Shown here in pieces: positions 827 through 33,324 of a stretch of DNA of 34,786 nucleotides. Source of the stretch: an uncultured Eubacterium sp. (GTDB taxonomy: Bacteria > Bacillota > Clostridia > Lachnospirales > Lachnospiraceae); the NCBI GenBank assembly GCA_947385875.1, contig CANDMV010000029.1, forward strand, positions 1 through 34,786, read 5' to 3'. A program made the position numbers and the translations under genes. Every line of letters begins with the position of its first letter. Position 1 is the first letter of the stretch. The notes under the pieces were generated by a model. It saw only the letters and a list, made by a program, of their open reading frames with translations. It did no database searches and was not told where the DNA came from.

Positions 827-1504
827 ATGCCGAAAATCATGGTGGTCGAGGATGATTTTGATATTCAGGAGCTGCTTGAGAATTTTTTGCGGGAGGCTGG
901 CTATGATGTAATGACTGCGGATGATGGAGTGGAAGCGATGTCTTTATTTATGGGAAACAAATTTGATTTAATACTGCTCGATCTTATGATTCCCAAAATA
1001 GACGGCTTTGGGGTCTGCGAATTAATACGGAAGCAGTCACAGGTGCCGATTATTATGCTGACTGCATTGAGCGGAGAGGAAGAGCAGTGCAGAGGTCTGG
1101 ATTTGCTTGTAGATGATTATATCACAAAGCCGTTTTCTATGCCTGTTTTAATACGAAAGATCGCTGCCGTGCTTAGAAGAAGCAGCCGTGTGCAAAACGA
1201 GGAGAACCGATGTATTTCTTACAAGAATCTGATTCTGGATTTGGAGAGCTATGCCGCGGTGGTGGACGGGAAATCTTTTGATCTGACACAGAGGGAATTT
1301 GAGGTGCTGCGTGAACTGCTGACTCACCAAGGCAGGGTGTTAACGAGACAGAATCTGTTAGATCGGTTGTGGAAATACGATTTTTATGGGGACGAGCGTG
1401 TCGTTGATACGCATATCAAGAACTTGAGGAAAAAGCTGGGCATTAGTTTTATCCAGACGATTCGAGGGGTGGGTTATAAGATTGATAAAGAAGATAAAGA
1501 GTAG
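827..1504 (+). CDS. OmpR/PhoB-type response regulator
   Basis: DNA-binding response regulator of 225 aa. The receiver domain spans about residues 1-118, with the acidic pair in VVEDD, the phospho-acceptor Asp in LILLDLMIPK, the switch Thr in MLTA and the Lys in YITKPFS. The C-terminal winged helix covers about 130-222 (LTQREFEVLRELLTHQGRVL ... VVDTHIKNLRKKLG ... IRGVGYKI). The 827 start is chosen because TGGAGGT at 814-820 is well spaced; the in-frame ATG at 794 lacks a ribosome site. The gene overlaps the start of the kinase gene by 23 bases, which implies translational coupling. The usual GADDY of receivers reads LVDDY here, a mild deviation. Confidence 0.95.
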   Translation: MPKIMVVEDDFDIQELLENFLREAGYDVMTADDGVEAMSLFMGNKFDLILLDLMIPKIDGFGVCELIRKQSQVPIIMLTALSGEEEQCRGLDLLVDDYITKPFSMPVLIRKIAAVLRRSSRVQNEENRCISYKNLILDLESYAAVVDGKSFDLTQREFEVLRELLTHQGRVLTRQNLLDRLWKYDFYGDERVVDTHIKNLRKKLGISFIQTIRGVGYKIDKEDKE

Positions 1505-3194
1505 TCTGTTTGCAAAGGTATTTCTGATTACACTGCTTTTTTTGTTAGGGATTTCTTTTCTTGTGTATGGGCTGATGGCATGGCTGATGCCGAAGACGTA
1601 TTCCAATCAGCTAAATGCACAGCTGGATAAAAAGACGCGGGATTTTATCACGGGATTGGAGCGGGCTGCGCGAGAGGATAGCGGGGGCTTGTTTGACCAG
1701 TTTTTACAGAATGAGGACATATATTCTGTGGAGCTTTATGCAGAGGACGGCCTTATGGTTTCGCTGCCGACGAATCAGGTATCGAATGAGCAGAGTGCAG
1801 GTGTAGAAGCATCGAATGAAGCATTGAATGAGCAGAGTATCGATGTAGAAGCATCGAATGAAGCATTGAATGAGCAGAGTGCAGGCGTAGAAGCAGTGGG
1901 TGAGCAGGGGGCAGGCGCAGAAGCAGCGGGCGAGCAGGATGCAGGTATGTACAGCACAGCAGACAACAGAAGCGTCGCAGAAGCAGCGGGCGAGCAGGGT
2001 TCAGGTATGTACAGCACAGCAGACAACAGAAGCGTCGCAGAAGCAGTGGACGAGCAGGGTTCAGGCATAGAAGCAGAGGACGGATATGAAGTGTCGGAAG
2101 CCGTATATGACAGCGGCGGCTCGTCTGAAGACAGTCCGGTATTGTCAGGCAGCTATTATTTTTCGTTTTTGGGAAGTGATGACCGCTATATGCTTATGGT
2201 CTATGGCTCAGCTGGACAGATTGCGCAGCTTCGGCAGTCTTTTTTGTATATTCTGCCTGTTCTGTCCGTTGTGGTGGTGGGAACTGCTTTTGCGGCAGCT
2301 GGAATTTATTCGCATCTAATTACGAAGCCGGTGCTAAAGATCAGCCGGATCTCTGAGAAAATGTCCGGCCTGCATCTGGAATGGAAGCTGGAAGAAAACC
2401 GGAGTGATGAATTGGGGATATTGGAAAAAAGCTTAAATGAGCTGTCGCATAATCTGTCAACCGCACTTTTAAAGCTGCAGAATGCGAATCAGCAGCTTGC
2501 GCAGGATATTGAGCGTGAGAAGAAAATAGAGCAGTCTCGGCTGGACTTTTTTTCAGCAGTATCCCATGAGCTGAAAACGCCGATTACAGCGATTAAAGGG
2601 CAGCTAGAGGGAATGCTGCTAGGGGTAGGGGCGTATAAAAATCATCAGAAATATTTGTCGAGGTCGCTGGAAATTGTAAATACTCTTGAAATCATGGTTC
2701 AGGAGATCCTGACAGTATCGAGACTGGAAACAGAAGATGGAAAGATTCGGAAGGAAGAGTTTGACGGTGTGCAGATGATCTTAAGGTGTCTGGATGGGAT
2801 GGAAGATTTGATTGTAAAGAAAGAGCTGAATGTGGAATGCGATCTGCCGGATGCGGCTTTGATCTGCGGCAGTAAGATGCTTATGGAGAAGGTATTTTCT
2901 AATCTGATTGGGAATGCGGTAAAGTATTCTCCGCAGGGGGGAGATGTGTTTATTGCTGTTAAAATGGCCGAGAATCAGTTTGATTTTTCTATTGAAAATT
3001 CGGGGGCGCAGATACCGCAGGAGAGTATACCGAAGCTTTTTGAGGCATTTTACCGTGTGGAGCAGTCAAGGAACAGGAAGACGGGCGGAAGCGGACTGGG
3101 ATTGTATATTGTGCAAAAAATACTGCAGCAGCATGACAGCAGCTGTATGGTCCGAAATACGCCGGCGGGGGTACGATTTTCGTTTACAATTTAA
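1482..3194 (+). CDS. Membrane sensor histidine kinase with repeat-rich sensor domain
   Basis: Cognate kinase of the regulator at 827 (570 aa). TM1 is about residues 11-36, an extracytoplasmic region about 37-250, TM2 about 251-278, then HAMP. HisKA carries SHELKTPITAIKG with His362, and HATPase_c carries the N box (NLIGNAVKYS) and the G2 box GGSGLGLYIVQKIL. The start is TTG, with GAGGGGTGGG at 1464-1473 as ribosome site; no ATG lies nearby in frame. The sensor segment at about residues 100-200 is almost wholly tandem repeats rich in Glu, Ala, Ser and Gln (see repeat entry). That is unusual for a ligand-binding domain and suggests a flexible stalk or wall-spanning spacer. The signal sensed is unknown. 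Confidence 0.95.
   Translation: MIKKIKSSLFAKVFLITLLFLLGISFLVYGLMAWLMPKTYSNQLNAQLDKKTRDFITGLERAAREDSGGLFDQFLQNEDIYSVELYAEDGLMVSLPTNQVSNEQSAGVEASNEALNEQSIDVEASNEALNEQSAGVEAVGEQGAGAEAAGEQDAGMYSTADNRSVAEAAGEQGSGMYSTADNRSVAEAVDEQGSGIEAEDGYEVSEAVYDSGGSSEDSPVLSGSYYFSFLGSDDRYMLMVYGSAGQIAQLRQSFLYILPVLSVVVVGTAFAAAGIYSHLITKPVLKISRISEKMSGLHLEWKLEENRSDELGILEKSLNELSHNLSTALLKLQNANQQLAQDIEREKKIEQSRLDFFSAVSHELKTPITAIKGQLEGMLLGVGAYKNHQKYLSRSLEIVNTLEIMVQEILTVSRLETEDGKIRKEEFDGVQMILRCLDGMEDLIVKKELNVECDLPDAALICGSKMLMEKVFSNLIGNAVKYSPQGGDVFIAVKMAENQFDFSIENSGAQIPQESIPKLFEAFYRVEQSRNRKTGGSGLGLYIVQKILQQHDSSCMVRNTPAGVRFSFTI
1803..2066 (+). repeat. In-frame tandem repeats coding the kinase sensor region
   Basis: Two repeat families lie end to end. 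A 42-bp period (14 codons, VEASNEALNEQS plus two residues) occurs at 1803-1844 and 1845-1886 with 36 identical bases at the start of each unit. A 60-bp period (20 codons containing GMYSTADNRSVAEA) occurs at 1921-1980 and 1981-2040, nearly identical, with a degenerate third start at 2041-2066. Both periods are multiples of three, so copy-number change would alter length without breaking the gene. Confidence 0.9.
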
Positions 3195-4357: not shown

Positions 4358-6160
4358 TTATTTCCAAAGCTTTTGATCAGACAAAATGGAACGTGTGATT
4401 TCAGATGCCCTGCTGCCCGTGGCATGATCTGAGGATTTAATATTAGCGGCAAAAAAATATGAATGGCCGTAAGATTCCACGCAGCCGACGAACCAGCCAT
4501 TTACATCATGGCCGTTGACGCATCCAGTACCGGTCTTTCCATAAAAACTTCCGTCTGCGGAAGAAGAAAGGAGGAGGGAGTTTTTTACGGCATCAATATT
4601 TTCTGGGGCGAAGCCGAAGTCGTTTGTAAACAGTTTTGTCAGGAGCTGAACCTGTTCGATCGCGGAAATTTTTAATGTAGATTCTATCCAGTAGGAGGAT
4701 ATGTCTGCATCTAAGTTCTGATTTCCATATTCGGTTTTTTGGATGTAATCCTTTATTAAGGACGCGCCGAGTTGTCTGTCGATCGCTTGAAAATACCAGT
4801 TTACGGAAAACTTCATCGCAGTATTCAGATCTTGGTCTTTATTCCATGATTCAAATGGGTAATTGGCTCTATTCCATGCGATGGAGGAGTTTTCGGGTGT
4901 AATGATACCTGCCTCCAGTCCAAACAGGGCATCGTATATTTTGTAGGTAGAGTCCGGCGACGACCGAAAAGCAGCCTGATCCATATGATATATGCTCCAT
5001 GCGTCAGCTTCCAAATCATATAGGACAAAGCTTCCTTCGTATTCGCCGAAATATTGGGAGAAATCTACTGTGGAAATAGTTTTCTTGGTAGTATCCCATT
5101 TATAAATCTCAAAGTCTGCCACATATGTGGATAACATGGGCGCAGTGCTTATAAGAATCACTGCAGCTGCTGCGAATGCCGCGGTGCTTTTGGCGTGCTT
5201 TCCCGCAGGAGGTTTTTGATAAGAAGCGATGCCGACGATACGCTTCTGCATCTGTTTCATCGTTCCGCTGATTCCGGCATCAAAAGAAAAAGGGGTGCGG
5301 GATACTTTTTGAGCAAGGCTGATCAAGGTCTTTCCGTAATCCTTATAATCAGATTCGTCCAGCAGCTGGAGTACGGAGGTATCGCAGGCGGCTTCCATGT
5401 CGTCACGCATTTCTCTGAGTGCGTACCAGACCAATGGGTGAAACCAGTATAAGATGCCGGCCAGATTGATCAGATGATTGACGAAGGTATCCTTATGTCT
5501 GTAGTGCTGCAGTTCATGAAGCAGCATATACCGCATGCCTTGAGCACTGTAATCTGATATTAGGTGAATCGGCAGATAAATGCATGGTCTAAAAAGCCCC
5601 GTAATCACAGGAGATTTCAAAAAAGCTGTGCTGTAAATGGATATGTCTGCTGTGATTCCAAGCTCGTCTAAGCATCTGTCGTATAGTGTGCGGACTTCTT
5701 TGCTCTGCACAGGGAGCGCGGATTTTTTCAATGTATTCAGGCGGTGCCTTGATTGGATCACCAGTATCAGCATTACCAGTATGCCCAGAATCCAGGCGGC
5801 ACACAAAAACAGGCCGATGGCAGACGGTGCTTTACGGCTGACAGAAACGGTAAAATCATTGATATTGCTTAAATAACTTGAATGAACGGCTGTGTAAGCG
5901 CTGGCGGATTCCATACCTGTTTTAGCTTCTGCTGCGGAAGATGTATGAAGCATATTCAGCCATGCGGCAATTTCAGAAAATCGAATCGGGCGCACCGGCA
6001 GCAATGGAACTGTCAGCAATGCAAGGAGTATGAACCATAGATTGTACTGCATACGGCTGGTCAGAATGCTTTTTAAACAGTATTTTAATAGCAGAAGAAT
6101 TATTATTATGCCGCTGATAAGCAGATTGCAGACGAGGAAGCGAATCATAAACTCTGACAT
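4358..6160 (-). CDS. blaR1: BlaR1/MecR1-type beta-lactam sensor-transducer
   Basis: Membrane antirepressor-type sensor (600 aa). The N-terminal M56 metalloprotease part has TM segments at about 5-30, 38-56 and 113-135, the zinc motif HELQH (residues 215-219) and the downstream EAACD. A further TM is at about 325-345. The C-terminal penicillin-binding sensor keeps all three serine-acylase motifs: STYK (404-407), SVN (452-454) and KTG (542-544). In the family, beta-lactam acylation of the sensor Ser triggers cytoplasmic proteolysis that leads to loss of BlaI. The start has AAAGGAATG upstream. blaI lies 181 bp upstream on the same strand. No beta-lactamase or PBP gene is adjacent, so the controlled resistance gene is elsewhere or the pair regulates other targets. 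Confidence 0.95.
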   Translation of the reverse strand: MSEFMIRFLVCNLLISGIIIILLLLKYCLKSILTSRMQYNLWFILLALLTVPLLPVRPIRFSEIAAWLNMLHTSSAAEAKTGMESASAYTAVHSSYLSNINDFTVSVSRKAPSAIGLFLCAAWILGILVMLILVIQSRHRLNTLKKSALPVQSKEVRTLYDRCLDELGITADISIYSTAFLKSPVITGLFRPCIYLPIHLISDYSAQGMRYMLLHELQHYRHKDTFVNHLINLAGILYWFHPLVWYALREMRDDMEAACDTSVLQLLDESDYKDYGKTLISLAQKVSRTPFSFDAGISGTMKQMQKRIVGIASYQKPPAGKHAKSTAAFAAAAVILISTAPMLSTYVADFEIYKWDTTKKTISTVDFSQYFGEYEGSFVLYDLEADAWSIYHMDQAAFRSSPDSTYKIYDALFGLEAGIITPENSSIAWNRANYPFESWNKDQDLNTAMKFSVNWYFQAIDRQLGASLIKDYIQKTEYGNQNLDADISSYWIESTLKISAIEQVQLLTKLFTNDFGFAPENIDAVKNSLLLSSSADGSFYGKTGTGCVNGHDVNGWFVGCVESYGHSYFFAANIKSSDHATGSRASEITRSILSDQKLWK

Positions 6161-6810: not shown

Positions 6811-7197
6811 AAAAAGGTGTAACAGTTCAGCCGAGTGCTCCGTCCAGACAGAAATTAGGCTTTAGTACTGACTGATTCGCGTCAGTGCAAGGCAAAATTT
6901 TGATGGGATGTGAGCCCCGTCGACTAGAGCGTGTTTGAAAAATCATTCCCGCGATCTGCACTCCCCACTTTGCGGATAATTCATCCCAAATTTAATCAAC
7001 ATAGCCCGCTATGCCTCATAAATTTGGGATAAATTCTCCACAAAGTGTGAAGCACATCTCACGGAAAGCATTTTTCAAACACGCTCTAGAAAACTTAACG
7101 CAGCAATGGCGTGAAACGGGCTCTTCGCCAAAGGAGAATTTTCAATGAGCTGGATTCCGTTATAGTGAAGCCGAAGGCTGAACTGTAACAAAAAGGT
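6811..7197. mobile_element. MITE with 14-bp terminal inverted repeats and 8-bp target duplication
   Basis: GTAACAGTTCAGCC (6819-6832) and GGCTGAACTGTAAC (7176-7189) are inverted repeats with one mismatch. AAAAAGGT flanks both ends directly (6811-6818 and 7190-7197), an 8-bp target-site duplication. The 371-bp body has no coding capacity. It contains the 166-bp palindrome at 6924-7089; without it the MITE would be 205 bp. The parent transposase is not in the window. Confidence 0.8.
6924..7089. mobile_element. 166-bp palindromic element (PATE-like) nested in the MITE
   Basis: The ends CTAGAGCGTGTTTGAAAAAT (6924-6943) and 7070-7089 are perfect 20-bp inverted repeats, and the whole element can fold into one long imperfect hairpin with its apex near 7007 (AAATTT...AAATTT arms). 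It has no coding capacity. Its right 36 bases (7054-7089) match the sequence just after the TnpB gene (8822-8857) at 32 of 36 positions. This suggests it is a non-autonomous relative of that element. Confidence 0.8.
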
Positions 7198-7269: not shown

Positions 7270-7427
7270 AAAAAGAACTGTTCCATATAGTGTACTTTTG
7301 GGGACAAAAAAGACTTGAACAAAATTACTAGAAATGAGGGTTAAATTTCTTGACTTTTTGACGATATTATATTAAAATAAACGCAGATTTAATGAATTAT
7401 AATAAAAAAAGAACTGTTCCATATAGT
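7270..7427 (+). repeat. 22-bp direct repeats and promoter upstream of the TnpB gene
   Basis: An identical 22-bp sequence starting AAAAAGAACTGTTCC lies at 7270-7291 and 7406-7427, 136 bp apart, each followed by a similar ACTTTTTG stretch. Between them TTGACT (7350-7355), a 17-base spacer and TAAAAT (7373-7378) form a good promoter reading toward the TnpB gene. The repeats could be regulator or autoregulation sites, or part of the element's left end. Confidence 0.55.
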
Positions 7428-7478
7428 ACAACTTTTTGAAACGTTTCTGCAAAAATTCAAAATTGGTGCCATGAAGAT

Positions 7479-8807
7479 ATGAGCATAAAAGAAACTTCAA
7501 TGAAACAGGAGAAAATATGCAAGACTGTATATCAGCAAAATAAAGAGCCGATTTCCGGAAAAGATATGGAGCGGCTTGTGGAGATTGCAGAGGATTACCG
7601 CAGCGTAAAAAATTATGTGTATCAGCGTTATGGCGGGATCAGAAGCCTGTCGAAGCTTTATCCGGGATACACTGTGCAGAATGAAATGACAGGCAGCGGT
7701 CTGCGCGAGCAGCTAGGAATGCCTTCTGTGTATTTTTATCTGGCAGTGTTTGATGCGCTTGGGGACATTAAGAGCCAGTGGACAAAGACTAAGGCAAGAG
7801 TTACGGAGAGGCTGAATGGGAATGCCGGCTTCACAGAAGAAGATAAGCATTATTTGAGATTTCTGCTAAAGGTTGGCAGTGCCTTTGAGCAGGTGCTGAA
7901 TGAAAAGCCGGTGAATCTTACGGAGCAGCTGATGCGGCAGCATGATCTTCTGGCTGCGGATGTAGATGCAGCCAGACTGTGCCGCTATCTGCGCAGGCAG
8001 GTGCGCAAGCTGCATGTAAAGCTGCATACGGATGAGGCATCTGGGTTTTCGCTGGCGGAGCGTGCCTATCGGTATGGAAATCATGGGATATATATATCTA
8101 CGAAAGAAAAGCGGAAGCGCATTTTTGTACCTCTTACGGATAATAACCAGTATAAAAGACAGCTGTACATTAAACTGTATCCGCTGAGCGGAGATCTTCG
8201 TATTCATGCTCCGGTAGATGTACGCATACGCAGCCACCCGGAGTATAGCAGACAGGTTGGTGTTGCATTTGGCATGTTTACAATGCTGACGACTGACGAA
8301 GGTCACTGCTATGGGGAGGAATTTGGCCGATACCAGCTGGATTATGCAGACTGGCTGCGGTCACAGGCCGCTTCTTATCAGCGTAACCGAGCCAATAATC
8401 CGGGGCGTAAGAAATATAACGCGAAAAAGCGGCGCTATGAGGAGCAGCTGCACAGCTATATCAATCATGCACTGAATGATTTTATTCAAAAGGAAAAGCC
8501 GCAGACGGTTTATATGGCGAAGCTTCCCAAGCCGCGGGCAGGCGGTGTAGACAGGAGGATTAATCATTCGGTATCGGTATGGCAGCGGGGATACATTCGC
8601 AGGCGCTTGGTACAAAAATGCAGAGAAGAATCTGTAGAACTGATTGAAGTGTTTGGTAAAGGAATCAGTACGGAATGCAGCAGATGCGGCAGTGAAGGAA
8701 TGAAAAAAGACAAGGTGTTTACTTGCCCGGAATGCGGATTACGTACAGAAGAAAAGGTAAACACTGCTCGAAATGTGAAGAAGCGCGGCGGGGCGTTTAG
8801 CTGCTGA
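7479..8807 (+). CDS. TnpB-family RNA-guided protein, apparently nuclease-dead (TldR-like)
   Basis: Full-length 442-aa TnpB relative with no stop or frameshift. The zinc finger is intact (C400, C403, C416, C419: CSRCG ... CPECG). The RuvC core is recognisable but the catalytic acids are not where expected. The RuvC-I motif, normally GIDLG, reads VGVAFGMF, with Ala263 at the Asp site. RuvC-II, normally 'ivvEdL', reads TVYMAKLPK, with Ala347 at the Glu site. RuvC-III, normally DxNAAxN, reads KVNTARNV, with Lys426 at the Asp site. Family knowledge: TnpB cuts DNA guided by an omega RNA from its 3' end, and nuclease-dead versions (TldR) act as RNA-guided repressors. Inference: this is a binding-only protein kept by selection. 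No tnpA is adjacent. The start could be 7479 or 7500; neither has a strong ribosome site. Confidence 0.85.
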   Translation: MSIKETSMKQEKICKTVYQQNKEPISGKDMERLVEIAEDYRSVKNYVYQRYGGIRSLSKLYPGYTVQNEMTGSGLREQLGMPSVYFYLAVFDALGDIKSQWTKTKARVTERLNGNAGFTEEDKHYLRFLLKVGSAFEQVLNEKPVNLTEQLMRQHDLLAADVDAARLCRYLRRQVRKLHVKLHTDEASGFSLAERAYRYGNHGIYISTKEKRKRIFVPLTDNNQYKRQLYIKLYPLSGDLRIHAPVDVRIRSHPEYSRQVGVAFGMFTMLTTDEGHCYGEEFGRYQLDYADWLRSQAASYQRNRANNPGRKKYNAKKRRYEEQLHSYINHALNDFIQKEKPQTVYMAKLPKPRAGGVDRRINHSVSVWQRGYIRRRLVQKCREESVELIEVFGKGISTECSRCGSEGMKKDKVFTCPECGLRTEEKVNTARNVKKRGGAFSC

Positions 8808-8821
8808 TAGCAGGAATGAGT

Positions 8822-8857
8822 ACATCTCACGGAAAGTATTTTTCAAACACGTTTCAG
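8822..8857 (+). ncRNA. Candidate omega-RNA 3' end / element right end
   Basis: This 36-base segment begins 14 bases after the TnpB stop and ends CAAACACGTTTCAG. It matches the right end of the palindromic element (7054-7089) at 32 of 36 positions. In TnpB systems the guide-RNA scaffold overlaps the end of tnpB and stops at the element's right end, and the next ~16-20 bases are the guide. By that logic the guide would start near 8858 (AACAGCATTTGACATG). The exact scaffold borders are not determined. Confidence 0.4.
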
Positions 8858-9155
8858 AACAGCATTTGACATGAAAACAATCATAAGGGCAGCTGTCTGA
8901 ATAAATTTTAGCATCGAGCTGAGATTTTACCGAAAGGATCAGAGAGCCTGCCCATGATATATAAAAAACAGACGGCATTAGAAGGCAGTTACGGCTGCGT
9001 ATTGGGTATGCCAGGACCCCTCGAACATGCAGCTGCATGATGTAGCGGGGAGCGAAGCAGGAAAGCCTGCATTGTCTGATATGAAGACAACCAATGTGCC
9101 TTATTATATGTTTGAAAGCAGAGGGGGTTATTCTTAAAAATAAGAATATAAGAAT
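8858..9155. other. Non-coding stretch between TnpB gene and glycan operon
   Basis: No convincing gene. It holds a perfect 14-bp palindrome CATGCAGCTGCATG (9026-9039) inside a CCCC/GGGG bracket (9017-9020, 9047-9050), and a GCAGG/CCTGC hairpin (9057-9070). Just before the first glycan gene is a TTCTTA/TAAGAA inverted repeat (9131-9146). No clear promoter for the glycan operon was found. Confidence 0.5.
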
Positions 9156-12668: not shown

Positions 12669-13768
12669 AAATACTCGTGACGGGTGCAAAAGGCTTTATT
12701 GGCAGAAATCTGGTGCATGCATTAAGAAACCACGGATATGAGGATATATTTGAATATGACAGGGGATTGTCCATAAGGCTTTTAGAAGCTTACTGCATGG
12801 AATGTGATTTTGTGTTCCACCTTGCGGGTATTAACCGGCCGAAGGATGATGAAGAATTTGCGCAGGGTAACCGTGATTTTACAAAACAGCTTACAGTTTT
12901 TTTGGAAAAGGGAAAGAGAGCGCCGGTTGTATATTCTTCTTCGATACAGGCAGAGATGGATAATCCTTATGGGAAAAGCAAGCGGGAGGGCGAGGCTGTC
13001 TTAAGGCAGTATGGAGAGAGCGGGGCCGAAGTATATATCTACCGATTTCCGAATGTATTCGGCAAGTGGTGCAGACCCAATTATAACAGTGCGGTTGCCA
13101 CGTTCTGCTATAACGCTGCACGCAGCCTGCCTATTCAGGTTCATGATAGAAACAGGGAGATGAAGCTTGTTTATATCGATGATGTCGTGGAAGAGCTGGT
13201 TAGATGCCTTGAAGGAAGGCCGAACTGGTGCGGGAGTCTTTGTTGTGTTGACACAGTTTATACAGAAAATCTGGAAGTGATCGCGGACACGATCTGTGGA
13301 TTTAGCAGCTGTGTGTCCAGCCTTCAGGTGCCGGATCAATCGGACGGGCTGGTAAAAAAGCTCTACAGCACATACCTCAGCTATCTGCCGGAAGAGAAAT
13401 TCAAATATCCGCTTGCTATGCACTGCGACAGCAGAGGTTCCTTTACAGAATTTCTAAGGACGAAGGAGAGAGGACAGGTGTCAGTTAATATCTCGAAGCC
13501 CGGCATCTTAAAAGGAGATCACTGGCATGATACAAAGCATGAGATCTTTCTTGTGGTAAGCGGTACCGGGGTAATTAGGCTTCGCAGACTAGATGATGAA
13601 GCAGTCATTGAGATCTGTGTGTCAGGAGAAAAACTAGAACCCGTGCTGATTCCGCCGGGATATGTACATCATATTGAAAATATCGGTGAGACAGATATGG
13701 TTACGGTTATGTGGGCGAATGAGGTATTTGACCCAGAGCGCCCGGATACCTATAGACAAGAAGTATGA
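12665..13768 (+). CDS. capF: CapF-like bifunctional reductase with C-terminal cupin
   Basis: Second step of UDP-L-FucNAc synthesis, a NADPH-dependent 4-reduction. It has 367 aa (S. aureus CapF about 369). The N-terminal short-chain dehydrogenase domain (1-245) has TGAKGFIGRNL, FHLAGINRP, SSSIQAEMDNPYGKSK (Ser-Tyr-Lys triad) and YRFPNVFGKWCRPNYNS. The C-terminal cupin (about 255-365) has GDHWHDTKHEIFLVVSGTG and PPGYVHHIENIG, including the His ligands. ATGA overlap with capE indicates tight coupling. Confidence 0.93.
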   Translation: MKILVTGAKGFIGRNLVHALRNHGYEDIFEYDRGLSIRLLEAYCMECDFVFHLAGINRPKDDEEFAQGNRDFTKQLTVFLEKGKRAPVVYSSSIQAEMDNPYGKSKREGEAVLRQYGESGAEVYIYRFPNVFGKWCRPNYNSAVATFCYNAARSLPIQVHDRNREMKLVYIDDVVEELVRCLEGRPNWCGSLCCVDTVYTENLEVIADTICGFSSCVSSLQVPDQSDGLVKKLYSTYLSYLPEEKFKYPLAMHCDSRGSFTEFLRTKERGQVSVNISKPGILKGDHWHDTKHEIFLVVSGTGVIRLRRLDDEAVIEICVSGEKLEPVLIPPGYVHHIENIGETDMVTVMWANEVFDPERPDTYRQEV

Positions 13769-13784
13769 TACTGGAGTGGTAATT

Positions 13785-15392
13785 TTGAGAAGATATGTGC
13801 AAAGGCAGCTGCTGCAGCTGGCAGAGGCGGTCTGGAATGGAATAAGATATGCAGGCTCTAATGGTTTGAAAGAAGGTCAGAAAGAAGATCTGGAGTCAGT
13901 GCTGCGGGAATGCTATGCAGGCATAGATGCATTGGACAGAACGCTCCTTGATTCCTTATCCAGTATCAGGCATAAAGAGTATCAGGAGCTGCTGGATTAT
14001 GTAAAAGAGCTGTTGGAGATGCTGAATGTAAAAACGAATCCTTCTGTTGTAAAAGTTAATGTCACAGATTCCTTAGACAGCGTAAAGATTTCCGATCTTA
14101 TGGATGCTCTGAATGACAATATGTCTGTACTGTTAAAAGAGCTGAAGTGTGAATCAGAGGTAAAGCTGGAAATTGTGTTTATGCCGTATAAGGCATCTAT
14201 GTGGGACTGTTTTGACAGCATATGGAAGGCAGCCGCGGAGGATGAAGGATGCAGAGTGACAGTTGTACCGATTCCGTATTATGACAAGAGCCCGGATGGA
14301 AAGCTGTGCAATTATTATTATGAAGGGGATGGCCTGCCTGCATATGTAAAGACTGTCCATTATCAGGAATATAGTATACAGCAGCATAAGCCGGATATTG
14401 TGTATATCCATAATCCATATGACGGATCCAATTATGTGACATCTGTTGCACCAGAGTATTATTCTGGTGAGCTGCGAAAATATACTGATCGGCTGGTCTA
14501 CGTACCGTATTTTATTGCGAGCGGCTACTCGGATGCGAAGAGTGCGTGGCCGTATATCGCGCCGATAGCAATTATAAATACGGATTATATTATTTACCAG
14601 TCGCCTGTCCAGCTGGAAATGCTAAAGGAATTGGGGCTGTACCAGAACAATGCGCTTGTGCTTGGCAGCCCTAAGCTGGATTACTATGCAGGCATGAAAG
14701 ATCCGGGGATGCCGGATAAAAGCTGGGAAAAATGCAGGAAATTCAAAAAAACGGTGCTGATGACTGCTACATTGGATATGCTGCTTGCGCAGTCAAACGA
14801 TACAGAGCCTTACCGATGGATATCACGTATGCAGTCGTTTTTGGACGTGATTCTGAGTTTTCCAGATTTGGCGCTGATTTTTCGTCCGCATCCTCTTATG
14901 AAGCAGACGATCCGCTCTATGAGGCCGTATTTAATAGATGAATATGAAAAACTGGAGAGCAGGATTGCAGGCTGTTCCTGCTGCATCATAGACCATGAGC
15001 AGGACAGCAGATATGCTGTTTACTGTGCTGATGCGCTGATTTCAGACGGCGGGTCTATGACTATGCAGTTTATGGCTGCGGAAAAGCCGGTATTAAATAT
15101 TTACGGATATGGAGCCGGCAGCTTTAGGTATCAGGCATTTGATTTGAGCGGGGCGTATTTTGCTGCACAGATGATATATCCGCAGCGGGATGATTATCTG
15201 AAGCTGTCATATAGTGACAGGATAAAAACTCTTGGAGAAGGAATTCATAGGTTCTGTGGCATGATCCTGAAGAATCAGGATCCGAAAAAAGAAGAACGTC
15301 TTGCCACAATGCGCAGGTCTGTAGCGAACTGTGATGGAACTGCAGGCAGAAAGATACACAGGCGGATTACGTCGGAAATTCTGGAGAAATAG
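13785..15392 (+). CDS. CDP-glycerol glycerophosphotransferase-like protein
   Basis: Protein of 535 aa. The N-terminal ~110 residues are helical. The C-terminal two thirds resemble the TagB/TagF glycerophosphotransferase superfamily, with LIFRPHPLMKQ (Arg367 region) and ADALISDGGSMTMQFMAAEKPVL near residue 416. These are the paired motifs that bind the CDP-activated donor. It may attach glycerol phosphate or a related polyol to the glycan. TTG at 13785 is chosen because GGAGTGG (13773-13779) precedes it; an in-frame extension would run into capF. It splits capF from capG, unusual for this pathway's gene order. Confidence 0.8.
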   Translation: MRRYVQRQLLQLAEAVWNGIRYAGSNGLKEGQKEDLESVLRECYAGIDALDRTLLDSLSSIRHKEYQELLDYVKELLEMLNVKTNPSVVKVNVTDSLDSVKISDLMDALNDNMSVLLKELKCESEVKLEIVFMPYKASMWDCFDSIWKAAAEDEGCRVTVVPIPYYDKSPDGKLCNYYYEGDGLPAYVKTVHYQEYSIQQHKPDIVYIHNPYDGSNYVTSVAPEYYSGELRKYTDRLVYVPYFIASGYSDAKSAWPYIAPIAIINTDYIIYQSPVQLEMLKELGLYQNNALVLGSPKLDYYAGMKDPGMPDKSWEKCRKFKKTVLMTATLDMLLAQSNDTEPYRWISRMQSFLDVILSFPDLALIFRPHPLMKQTIRSMRPYLIDEYEKLESRIAGCSCCIIDHEQDSRYAVYCADALISDGGSMTMQFMAAEKPVLNIYGYGAGSFRYQAFDLSGAYFAAQMIYPQRDDYLKLSYSDRIKTLGEGIHRFCGMILKNQDPKKEERLATMRRSVANCDGTAGRKIHRRITSEILEK

Positions 15393-32385: not shown

Positions 32386-32532
32386 ATTATGATAGTAATT
32401 ATAGAAAATGAGAGTCACAGTTCAAGCGGTTTTGCACATATATTGCTAGACATTGACAGAATTGTAACAATGGTGAACGCAGAAGCTTTAAAAGCTATTG
32501 AGGCCGTTGTCCTGCTGTTATGGAGGGAGAGA

Positions 32533-33324
32533 ATGATTTTAAAGTGCTGTAATAAAGGGCATTATTATGATGGAGATAAATATCAAAATTGTCCGCATTG
32601 TTTGGAAGAAGGTCAAAGTCTGCAAAAAAGTAAGGCACGGCATATTTTGAAAAGAAAAACATCTATAAAGAATAGTTCAGCAGAAATGTCTGTTAATGTA
32701 TCACAGCATAGCTTCCAATCAAGGTCTTCGTCATCAGAAGAATCAATGACAATGTGCCTGCCATCCAACGATGAAGAATCAATGACGATGTGTCTGCCAT
32801 CCAATGATAAAGAATCAATGACAATGTGTCTGCCATCTAATGATGAAGAATCAATGACAATGTGCCTGCCATCCAACGATGAAGAATCAATGACGATGTG
32901 TCTGCCATCCAACAATGATGATTCGCTGACAGTTTGTCTGCCCGCTAAGCAGCATAATTCGTTGGAAAGGTTACCGCAGGCCGGCAGTCTGGATATTTTT
33001 CTAGCAGAGCAAAGGCTGACCGCAGGATGGTTTGTATGTATCAATGGAAAAGAATTTGGCAGAAGCTTTGCTGTAAAGAATGGGAAAAATCTGATTGGAC
33101 ATGCAGTCGTTTATTATTTGATGAAGCATAATAAATTTATGATAGAACCTGGAGATACAAGGAATTTGTTTTATTTAAATGAAGAACCCGTGTTAAATCC
33201 TGTTGAAATGAAAAGGCATGACATTTTAAAAATAGGAGGTATCAGCCTGATGCTAGTGCCATTGTGCGGGAAAGATTTTAGCTGGACAGAATTGATAAAA
33301 ACGAACAGGGAGAGAAGCCTATGA
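32533..33324 (+). CDS. Zinc-ribbon/FHA-type protein with 12-residue repeats, Tad pilus locus
   Basis: Protein of 263 aa. The N-terminal zinc ribbon is CCNKGHYYDGDKYQNCPHC (5-23). A basic linker follows. Residues 69-128 are five near-identical EESMTMCLPSND repeats with a sixth divergent copy. The C-terminal FHA-like domain spans about 155-250 (GWFVCINGKEFGRSFAVKNG KNLIG ... FMIEPGDTRNLFYLNEEPV ... DILKIGGISLMLVPLCG). Relative to FHA domains the stretch between NLIG and HAVVYY seems about 25 residues short, removing the phosphothreonine-binding Arg/Ser loops. ATG 32533 is chosen for GGAGGGAGAG just upstream; in-frame codons reach 32389 without a ribosome site. It overlaps the next gene by 4 bases. 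It probably regulates or scaffolds pilus assembly. Confidence 0.75.
   Translation: MILKCCNKGHYYDGDKYQNCPHCLEEGQSLQKSKARHILKRKTSIKNSSAEMSVNVSQHSFQSRSSSSEESMTMCLPSNDEESMTMCLPSNDKESMTMCLPSNDEESMTMCLPSNDEESMTMCLPSNNDDSLTVCLPAKQHNSLERLPQAGSLDIFLAEQRLTAGWFVCINGKEFGRSFAVKNGKNLIGHAVVYYLMKHNKFMIEPGDTRNLFYLNEEPVLNPVEMKRHDILKIGGISLMLVPLCGKDFSWTELIKTNRERSL
32737..32952 (+). repeat. 36-bp coding tandem repeat, five copies plus one divergent
   Basis: Units start at 32737, 32773, 32809, 32845 and 32881, with a divergent one at 32917-32952. Copies 1-5 differ only at a few silent or single-residue positions; copy 3 has Lys for Glu. Near-identity at DNA level points to recent expansion. Confidence 0.95.

What the first reader, a model, noticed from the sequence alone, without database searches (positions are those of the whole stretch)
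7479..8807. Intact TnpB-family gene with all three RuvC catalytic acids replaced
The three RuvC motifs can be located by their surroundings, but the acids read Ala263 (VGVAFG for GIDLG), Ala347 (YMAKLPK for vEdL) and Lys426 (KVNTARN for DxNAAxN). The 442-codon frame is undamaged and the four zinc-finger Cys are kept. A transposon gene that has lost activity by drift would normally gather stops. Loss of only the catalytic residues fits a domesticated RNA-guided DNA-binding protein, like the TldR repressors known from other bacteria. The protein lies between a beta-lactam regulator unit and a surface-glycan operon, so it could control either.
Basis: partly seen in the sequence, partly recalled or inferred. 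Interest (0 to 1): 0.87.

Follow-up and report, generated by a model that had tools for sequence, protein, structure and literature searches.

The report
RNA-guided rivalry between sugar-coat operons
In a gut bacterium, a surface-sugar gene cluster begins with a promoter that occurs in both orientations among related clusters, a gene for a TnpB-type protein that lacks its DNA-cutting residues, and a conserved structured RNA, and this protein and RNA likely act together to silence competing sugar-coat clusters in the same cell.

Summary
In detail: the intact 442-codon TnpB-like gene lacks all three RuvC acids, and 0 of 280 aligned relatives keep one. The gene opens a glycan operon, behind a promoter found in both orientations among relatives, and a ~225-nt RNA with strong covariation follows it (21 of 30 pairs). 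The RNA ends in a guide-like tail, ATRTRYYTTATTW. GTWT-preceded copies of the tail lie in glycan-operon leaders and in the codons of an LVY[V/I]PYF motif of one glycan gene, which is in 30 of 30 RNA-bearing genomes and 7 of 41 others. A tail matched its own operon's gene in 0 of 21 cases; genes elsewhere were matched in 9 of 30. Leader sites show the same self-avoidance. Best reading: a TldR-like, RNA-guided repressor giving hierarchical mutual exclusion of surface glycans. Guide use, binding and silencing are inferred. Some tests failed. My searches found no such glycan system in print. New variant of the TldR kind.

The parts
7274..7305 (.). left inversion half-site, AGAACTGTTCCATATAGT then GTACTTTTGGGGAC
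   Evidence: repeat D2; read as a hybrid of the two palindromes seen in the paralogue L173
7350..7378 (+). invertible promoter in the ON orientation, TTGACT-17-TAAAAT
   Evidence: on + in W, L144 and L145; on - in 20 other loci (output re-read); inner segment aligns inverted to the paralogue L173 (score 64.5 against 20)
7410..7443 (.). right inversion half-site, AGAACTGTTCCATATAGT then ACAACTTTTTGAAACG
   Evidence: repeat D2
7479..8807 (+). cleavage-dead TnpB-like protein, 442 aa (A263, A347, K426)
8882..9106 (+). conserved structured RNA (scaffold plus guide-like tail); both ends inferred from conservation
   Evidence: (fold z -3.65); covariance model R1 hits
8887..8953 (+). 5' domain of the RNA; GGGCAG (8887-8892) faces CTGCCC (8948-8953)
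   Evidence: fold; many relatives have GAAC/GTTC in its place (by eye)
8972..9058 (+). core of the RNA, R1 match, 100.9 bits, E 1.2e-18 (a member of the model's own alignment)
9057..9090 (+). two 3' hairpins (9057-9070 and 9072-9090) in front of the tail
   Evidence: helices 5 and 6
9094..9106 (+). guide-like tail ATGTGCCTTATTA
   Evidence: found in 48 RNA loci as ATRTRYYTTATTW, with deviants such as L157, L159, L169, L171, L172
9156..19221 (+). glycan operon: sugar transferases, polysaccharide biosynthesis proteins, UDP-GlcNAc 2-epimerase
   Evidence: Pfam
13662..15392 (+). LVYVPYF gene of the operon (no Pfam or NCBIfam hit at E 0.001)
14496..14513 (+). own copy of the coding motif, GTCTACGTACCGTATTTT, which lacks GTWT and mismatches the own tail (3 of 12, 1 of them non-wobble)

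Best explanation
The window holds a cleavage-dead TnpB-like protein and a conserved structured RNA at the head of a glycan operon whose promoter is seen in both orientations among relatives, and the two likely form an RNA-guided repressor that silences rival surface-glycan operons in the same cell. Shown from sequence: loss of the RuvC acids in every relative aligned, the covarying RNA with its conserved tail, promoter inversion between related loci, and GTWT-preceded tail-like sites in other glycan operons. Inferred: the 3' tail is the guide, GTWT is the target-adjacent motif, and the complex blocks transcription without cutting. Model: when recombination turns a promoter ON, that operon makes its dead TnpB and RNA; the RNA tail pairs with sites in the leaders of other operons, or with the codons for VY[V/I]PYF in their LVYxPYF gene, and stops their transcription. 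The active operon is spared because its own site differs at the first tail positions, in genes by synonymous codons. In S. musculi and in genome G283 the matches form a ranking rather than a symmetric network.
For: Dead clade: 0 of 280 with any acid. RNA: 21 of 30 pairs change on both sides, 0 of 500 shuffles reach this; of 48 RNA loci examined, 40 have a full-length dead tnpB just upstream, 5 a partial one and 3 none. Co-occurrence: the LVYxPYF gene is in 30 of 30 RNA-bearing genomes and 7 of 41 RNA-free ones; Fisher 1.4e-11 for the first 23 against the 41. Target pattern GTWTATRTRYYTTATTW: 28 hits in 34 genomes against 6 for the reversed pattern; of 16 hits in RNA-bearing genomes outside the ten defining leader sites, 8 are in the LVYxPYF codons, 2 in or just before LicD-type genes, and 6 between genes that look glycan-related, L179 least clearly (mostly by eye). 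Self-avoidance at leader sites: own tail perfect over 12 nt in 0 of 12, another locus of the genome perfect in 5 of 12 (permutation p 0.01); wobble-aware permutation p 0.003. Self-avoidance in genes: own tail matches 0 of 14, some tail of the genome matches 8 of 23 genes elsewhere, p 0.015; further genomes 0 of 7 against 1 of 7, pooled p 0.007. Covariation of tails with genes elsewhere: 4 perfect against 0.76 expected, p 0.0016; in G343 an altered tail ATATTCCTTATTAT equals a gene site over 14 nt, and in G397 tail ATATACC equals the distant gene while the adjacent gene has the synonymous Ile codon. Promoter inversion; tyrosine recombinase beside the locus (Pfam for L151 and L130; C-terminal motif by eye in 8 loci).
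Against: No expression, binding or repression data. Across genomes, leader and intergenic sites are not matched better by their own genome's tails than by shuffled tails (7 against 5.3, p 0.21), and with one mismatch allowed genes give p 0.08 and all sites 0.19. The further genomes add one matched gene only and belong in part to genera already used. In a second pattern search 8 RNA-bearing genomes gave 3 hits while 57 RNA-free genomes gave 10, near the control's 8 in 65. An RNA-free genome (G017) also has a gene that fits the pattern. Three of the gene hits (those of G000, G057 and G273) had been seen before the pattern was fixed. Own site L155 differs from its own tail by wobbles only, as does own gene L227 (four wobbles); the G343 tail belongs to a locus whose tnpB is broken. 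In the window genome only one outside site fits (C15 gene, one wobble), and that genome is fragmented. 15 of 23 gene copies elsewhere match no tail. Patterns and match rules were set after seeing part of the data.
Confidence: 0.62

Rival explanations
1. The dead TnpB binds the nascent RNA in cis and acts as a processive antiterminator or leader regulator of its own glycan operon; the tail is a structural or termination element, not a guide.
For: In the loci inspected the RNA lies between the tnpB gene and the glycan genes, in the leader; UpxY antitermination works on Bacteroides capsule operons (PMC7315117 passages).
Against: It does not explain the GTWT-preceded copies of the tail in other operons, the own-site mismatches, or tails that change together with genes elsewhere in the genome. 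RNA copies without tnpB and a tnpB copy without RNA exist in G283.
Confidence: 0.2
2. A TldR-like repressor, but aimed at some unrelated host gene; the resemblance of the tail to the LVYxPYF codons and leader sites is coincidence.
For: Known TldRs and their relatives are tied to other genes such as flagellin (PMC13418256 passages); codons of the motif vary freely; pattern hits in later genomes were near background.
Against: Co-occurrence of RNA and the LVYxPYF gene; tail-gene covariation p 0.0016; own-site avoidance.
Confidence: 0.12
3. A decaying transposon passenger with no function that happens to lie in a glycan operon.
For: One truncated copy in the same genome (L002/L173) and several partial copies elsewhere, two of which merely run off contig ends.
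Against: Fixed substitutions in 280 of 280, dN/dS 0.06-0.20, conserved RNA structure, repeated position behind an invertible promoter.
Confidence: 0.03

Closest known systems
TldR, TnpB-like nuclease-dead repressors (fliC- and csrA-associated; PMC13418256, passages read; founding paper recalled only)
   Same: Dead RuvC in a TnpB-like protein, RNA encoded just downstream of the gene, short guides suffice (6 nt there), targets inside coding sequence in the csrA-type loci, and a promoter-region inversion beside csrA-type loci.
   Different: Here the predicted targets are surface-glycan operons, not flagellin; tails are nearly fixed across the family; several copies per genome whose tails match each other's operons and avoid their own; tyrosine-type recombinases lie beside several loci, against Hin there.
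Bacteroides UpxY/UpxZ capsule cross-regulation with invertible promoters (PMC7315117, passages read)
   Same: Regulator genes at the start of capsule operons, promoter inversion at some of them, and one locus repressing non-adjacent loci.
   Different: UpxZ acts by interacting with the UpxY antiterminator protein; here the specificity would lie in an RNA tail and a DNA site.
Transposon TnpB/omegaRNA and Cas12f
   Same: Protein fold, zinc finger, RNA downstream of the gene.
   Different: No catalytic acids; the RNA matches no Rfam family at the thresholds used. Transposon ends and tnpA were not searched for.
Cas12m and other binding-only type V effectors (abstract in a search listing only)
   Same: Would act by binding, not cutting.
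   Different: Cas12m belongs to CRISPR systems; I did not look for an array here.

Membership tests
TnpB superfamily | TnpB/Cas12f fold with RuvC and zinc-finger (TNB) domain | tested here: met
TnpB superfamily | NCBIfam guided_TnpB cut-off | tested here: not met
   64.5 against 100 bits
active TnpB nuclease | RuvC Asp/Glu/Asp | tested here: not met
   A263, A347, K426; 0 of 280 aligned with an acid; A263 placed by motif and strand only
TldR | TnpB-like protein with inactivated RuvC | tested here: met
TldR | structured RNA encoded next to the gene with a 3' guide | tested here: inconclusive
   covarying RNA shown; guide role of the tail inferred
TldR | genomic target with an adjacent motif, matched by the guide | tested here: inconclusive
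   GTWT plus tail-like sites; statistics moderate, some tests negative
TldR | stable association with a non-transposon gene | tested here: met
   LVYxPYF gene in 30 of 30 RNA-bearing genomes against 7 of 41
TldR | RNA-guided binding and repression | not testable with these tools
   needs RIP-seq, ChIP-seq, reporter assay
TldR | shared descent with the published TldR clades | not tested
   their sequences were not at hand
phase-variable invertible promoter | promoter between inverted sites found in both orientations | tested here: met
   + in 3, - in 20 loci of 50 examined; inner segment inverted, right flank forward in two locus pairs; not shown within one strain
UpxY/UpxZ system | NusG-like antiterminator and UpxZ proteins | not tested
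   no search for them was made; a resemblance in logic only

The most novel reading that the evidence does not exclude
Gut Lachnospiraceae run a one-coat-at-a-time system in which each invertible glycan operon carries its own cleavage-dead TnpB and guide RNA, and ranking among the coats is written in a few guide letters: an active operon silences operons below it by RNA-guided binding to leaders or to the VYxPYF codons of a shared gene, and spares itself through synonymous codons. The guide would be a fossil of the ancestral transposon's insertion into that very gene.
Probability: 0.5. Interest if true: 0.93.

Novelty: new variant of a known kind. Interest (0 to 1): 0.85.

Why it matters
Gut bacteria with many surface-glycan operons must choose which to express; in Bacteroides this is done with proteins. 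If this reading is right, some gut Lachnospiraceae make the choice with RNA guides, distinguishing self from non-self operons by a few nucleotides. It would add surface glycans to the known targets of domesticated TnpB and give a natural, multi-copy CRISPRi-like network with a testable ranking. The predicted matches can be tested directly, letter by letter.

Tried and rejected
Rfam found no family for the RNA (whole window at gathering scores, five relatives at E up to 1, one chance-level microRNA hit). A first idea that the tail pairs within the RNA core was dropped: pairing of the tail with GGCAT or AAGGCA is not kept in L020, L005, L022, L011 or L012 (by eye). Searching 12 genomes with TATATGTGCCTTATTW at up to 2 mismatches gave no excess over the reversed control; the tighter pattern did but not clearly. 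I first took the tail's likeness to YVPYF codons for chance, because codon choice in the motif is free; the own-against-other and covariation tests changed that. Tests that failed: leader and intergenic sites against tails shuffled across genomes (p 0.21), the same at one mismatch (p 0.64), genes at one mismatch (p 0.08), all kinds at one mismatch (p 0.19). The script had an index error in the motif context; its gene tallies are void and one search replaces them (the co-occurrence test printed there stands). In one search the script labels L129, L131, L132, L148 and L165 as ON because of weak chance hits on the + strand; by the conserved promoter itself they are OFF, and I counted them so. In 27 of the 50 loci that promoter was not found or there was no tnpB to anchor on. 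In one search the two pairs with L126 are void (the BLAST piece began upstream of the start with a stop), and three other pairs had saturated dS. Rows dropped: the RNA alignment A1 used 15 of the 20 copies then at hand. One search was given 42 of the 47 gene rows of RNA-bearing genomes (left out: second pieces, one broken copy, one weak hit) and all 8; 5 and 2 of these have no motif; which genes count as own was my judgement from contig, strand and distance. One search was given 16 of 17 rows; 2 have no motif, and tails of L281, L283 and L284 are uncertain (11-13 of 16 consensus letters). The leader-site test used 12 of 13 sites (L146, two pattern mismatches, left out), and L126/L127 and L139/L143 are close relatives, so the sites are not all independent. 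'RNA-free' means no hit in the protein search or the model search. Literature: the listings show no paper on dead TnpB and glycans (searches list 20 of 34 and 20 of 71); the library lacks most subscription papers.

Full report

THE RNA. A conserved segment follows the gene. Fifteen of the 20 sequences at hand, aligned by MAFFT, give 30 pairs, 21 with changes on both sides; on all five measures none of 500 shuffles reaches the observed value, and the slid controls are far lower. The structure came from the same alignment, so the slid control is favoured by construction. The window copy folds at z -3.65. A covariance model of the 87-position core finds 35 copies in 14 genomes chosen for having the gene, and copies in 18 of 397 and 19 of 396 sampled family genomes (the draws overlap). 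Of 48 loci examined, 40 have a full dead tnpB upstream, 5 a partial one (two at contig ends), 3 none. The RNA ends in CCA followed by ATRTRYYTTATTW in most loci; some distant members keep little more than GTGCCYTAT. No Rfam family matches at the thresholds used.

THE PROMOTER. A conserved promoter (TTGAC...CGATA...TAGAAT) points away from the gene in 20 loci and towards it in three, the window among them, of 50 examined (with the re-reading told under Tried and rejected). Between related loci the inner segment aligns only inverted (L145/L140 and L144/L139, score 104 of 120 inverted against 25 and 31.5 forward) while the right-hand outer flank aligns forward (41.5 against 11.5, and 91 against 13.5); the left flanks are short and less clear. 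For the window against its paralogue L173 the inner segment is inverted (64.5 against 20) but the flanks align in neither orientation. The window's two half-sites read as hybrids of the two palindromes of that paralogue, as one inversion would leave them. A tyrosine recombinase lies beside several loci (Pfam for two; motif by eye in eight). I did not search the window's other ORFs for one.

THE OPERON. Downstream genes are sugar transferases and polysaccharide enzymes. One gene (13662-15392) has no Pfam or NCBIfam hit but carries a motif LVY[V/I]PYF. Its relatives are in 14 of 14, 9 of 9 and 7 of 7 RNA-bearing genomes and in 7 of 41 RNA-free ones.

THE SITES. In S. musculi and some other genomes a second copy of the tail, mostly preceded by GTWT, lies 36-132 nt beyond the RNA tail, in front of the glycan genes. 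The pattern GTWTATRTRYYTTATTW, taken from tails and these sites, gives 28 hits in 34 genomes (26 in 22 RNA-bearing, 2 in 12 RNA-free) against 6 for the reversed pattern. Ten are the leader sites that defined it. Of the other 16 in RNA-bearing genomes, eight are in the codons of the LVY[V/I]PYF motif (three of them seen before the pattern was fixed), one lies about 45 nt before the first ATG of a LicD gene (L188; Pfam), one inside a LicD-like ORF in another frame (L192), and six lie between genes of, or in front of, operons that look glycan-related by eye (L177, L179, L181 with L194, L193, L200; L179 is the least clear). One of the two RNA-free hits is also in the LVYVPYF codons (G017). A later set gave 3 hits in 8 RNA-bearing genomes and 10 in 57 RNA-free ones, control 8, so the pattern alone is not specific.

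WHO MATCHES WHOM. At 12 leader sites the own tail is never perfect over 12 nt, while another locus of the same genome is perfect at 5 and better at 10 (permutation p 0.01); allowing wobble, own 1, other 7, permutation p 0.003. In S. musculi, tails of L129, L130 and L132 fit the sites of L126 and L127, whose tails fit the site of L131 over 15 nt. In G283, tails of L154 and L155 fit the site of L153, whose tail fits the site in C30. Genes: own tail matches 0 of 14, some tail of the genome matches 8 of 23 genes elsewhere (p 0.015); further genomes, some of genera already used, 0 of 7 and 1 of 7 (pooled p 0.007). Across genomes, perfect tail-gene pairs number 4 against 0.76 in shuffles (p 0.0016), but leader and intergenic sites show no such excess (7 against 5.3, p 0.21).

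THE WINDOW'S OWN CASE. The tail ATGTGCCTTATTA faces ATGTACCTTATTT behind GTAT in the LVYVPYF gene of a second glycan contig, C15 (one wobble in 12), whereas its own gene reads GTCT-ACGTACCGTATT. The promoter is ON. The paralogue on C142 is OFF and broken.

HOW IT LIKELY WORKS. Inference: the protein binds the RNA, the tail pairs with one DNA strand at GTWT-marked sites, and the bound complex blocks transcription, as in TldR (PMC13418256, passages). Short guides suffice there (6 nt), which suits the observed differences at tail positions 3 to 7. The same paper reports csrA-type TldRs in gut bacteria with targets inside fliC and a Hin-type inversion beside them; this is the nearest published parallel I saw and why I call this a new variant, not a new category. 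The logic recalls UpxZ in Bacteroides (PMC7315117, passages).

LIMITS. No experiment. Match rules were chosen after seeing part of the data; related loci inflate counts; assemblies are fragmented.

Noticed in passing
6924-7089 and 8819-8859: A long hairpin (82-nt arms, 78% complementary) upstream of the gene, with an 88% copy of its 41-nt end right after the gene; looks like a small repeat element present twice.
   Followed up: no
L173 (G000:C142): A second glycan locus of the same genome with promoter OFF; its dead tnpB is cut off and runs into an operon gene, and its LVYVPYF gene breaks off just before the motif.
   Followed up: partly
L145 (G303:C36, contig start): The assembly holds a 134-nt inverted copy of the promoter region near the contig end, as if both orientations were present in the sequenced population.
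   Followed up: no
L152, L153, L155 (G283): Copies of the RNA without any tnpB nearby, while G283:C30 has tnpB and a site but no RNA.
   Followed up: partly
4358-6160: BlaR1-type peptidase M56 protein that also carries a penicillin-binding transpeptidase domain, beside a BlaI-type repressor.
   Followed up: no
1482-3194: Histidine-kinase-like ORF whose N-terminal part holds a run of near-identical repeats.
   Followed up: no
32389-33324: ORF with about six copies of a 12-residue repeat ending in MTMCLPSN.
   Followed up: no
13662-15392 and relatives: Family of glycan-operon proteins with the motif LVY[V/I]PYF that no Pfam or NCBIfam model matched at E 0.001, sometimes in an 850-aa form.
   Followed up: partly
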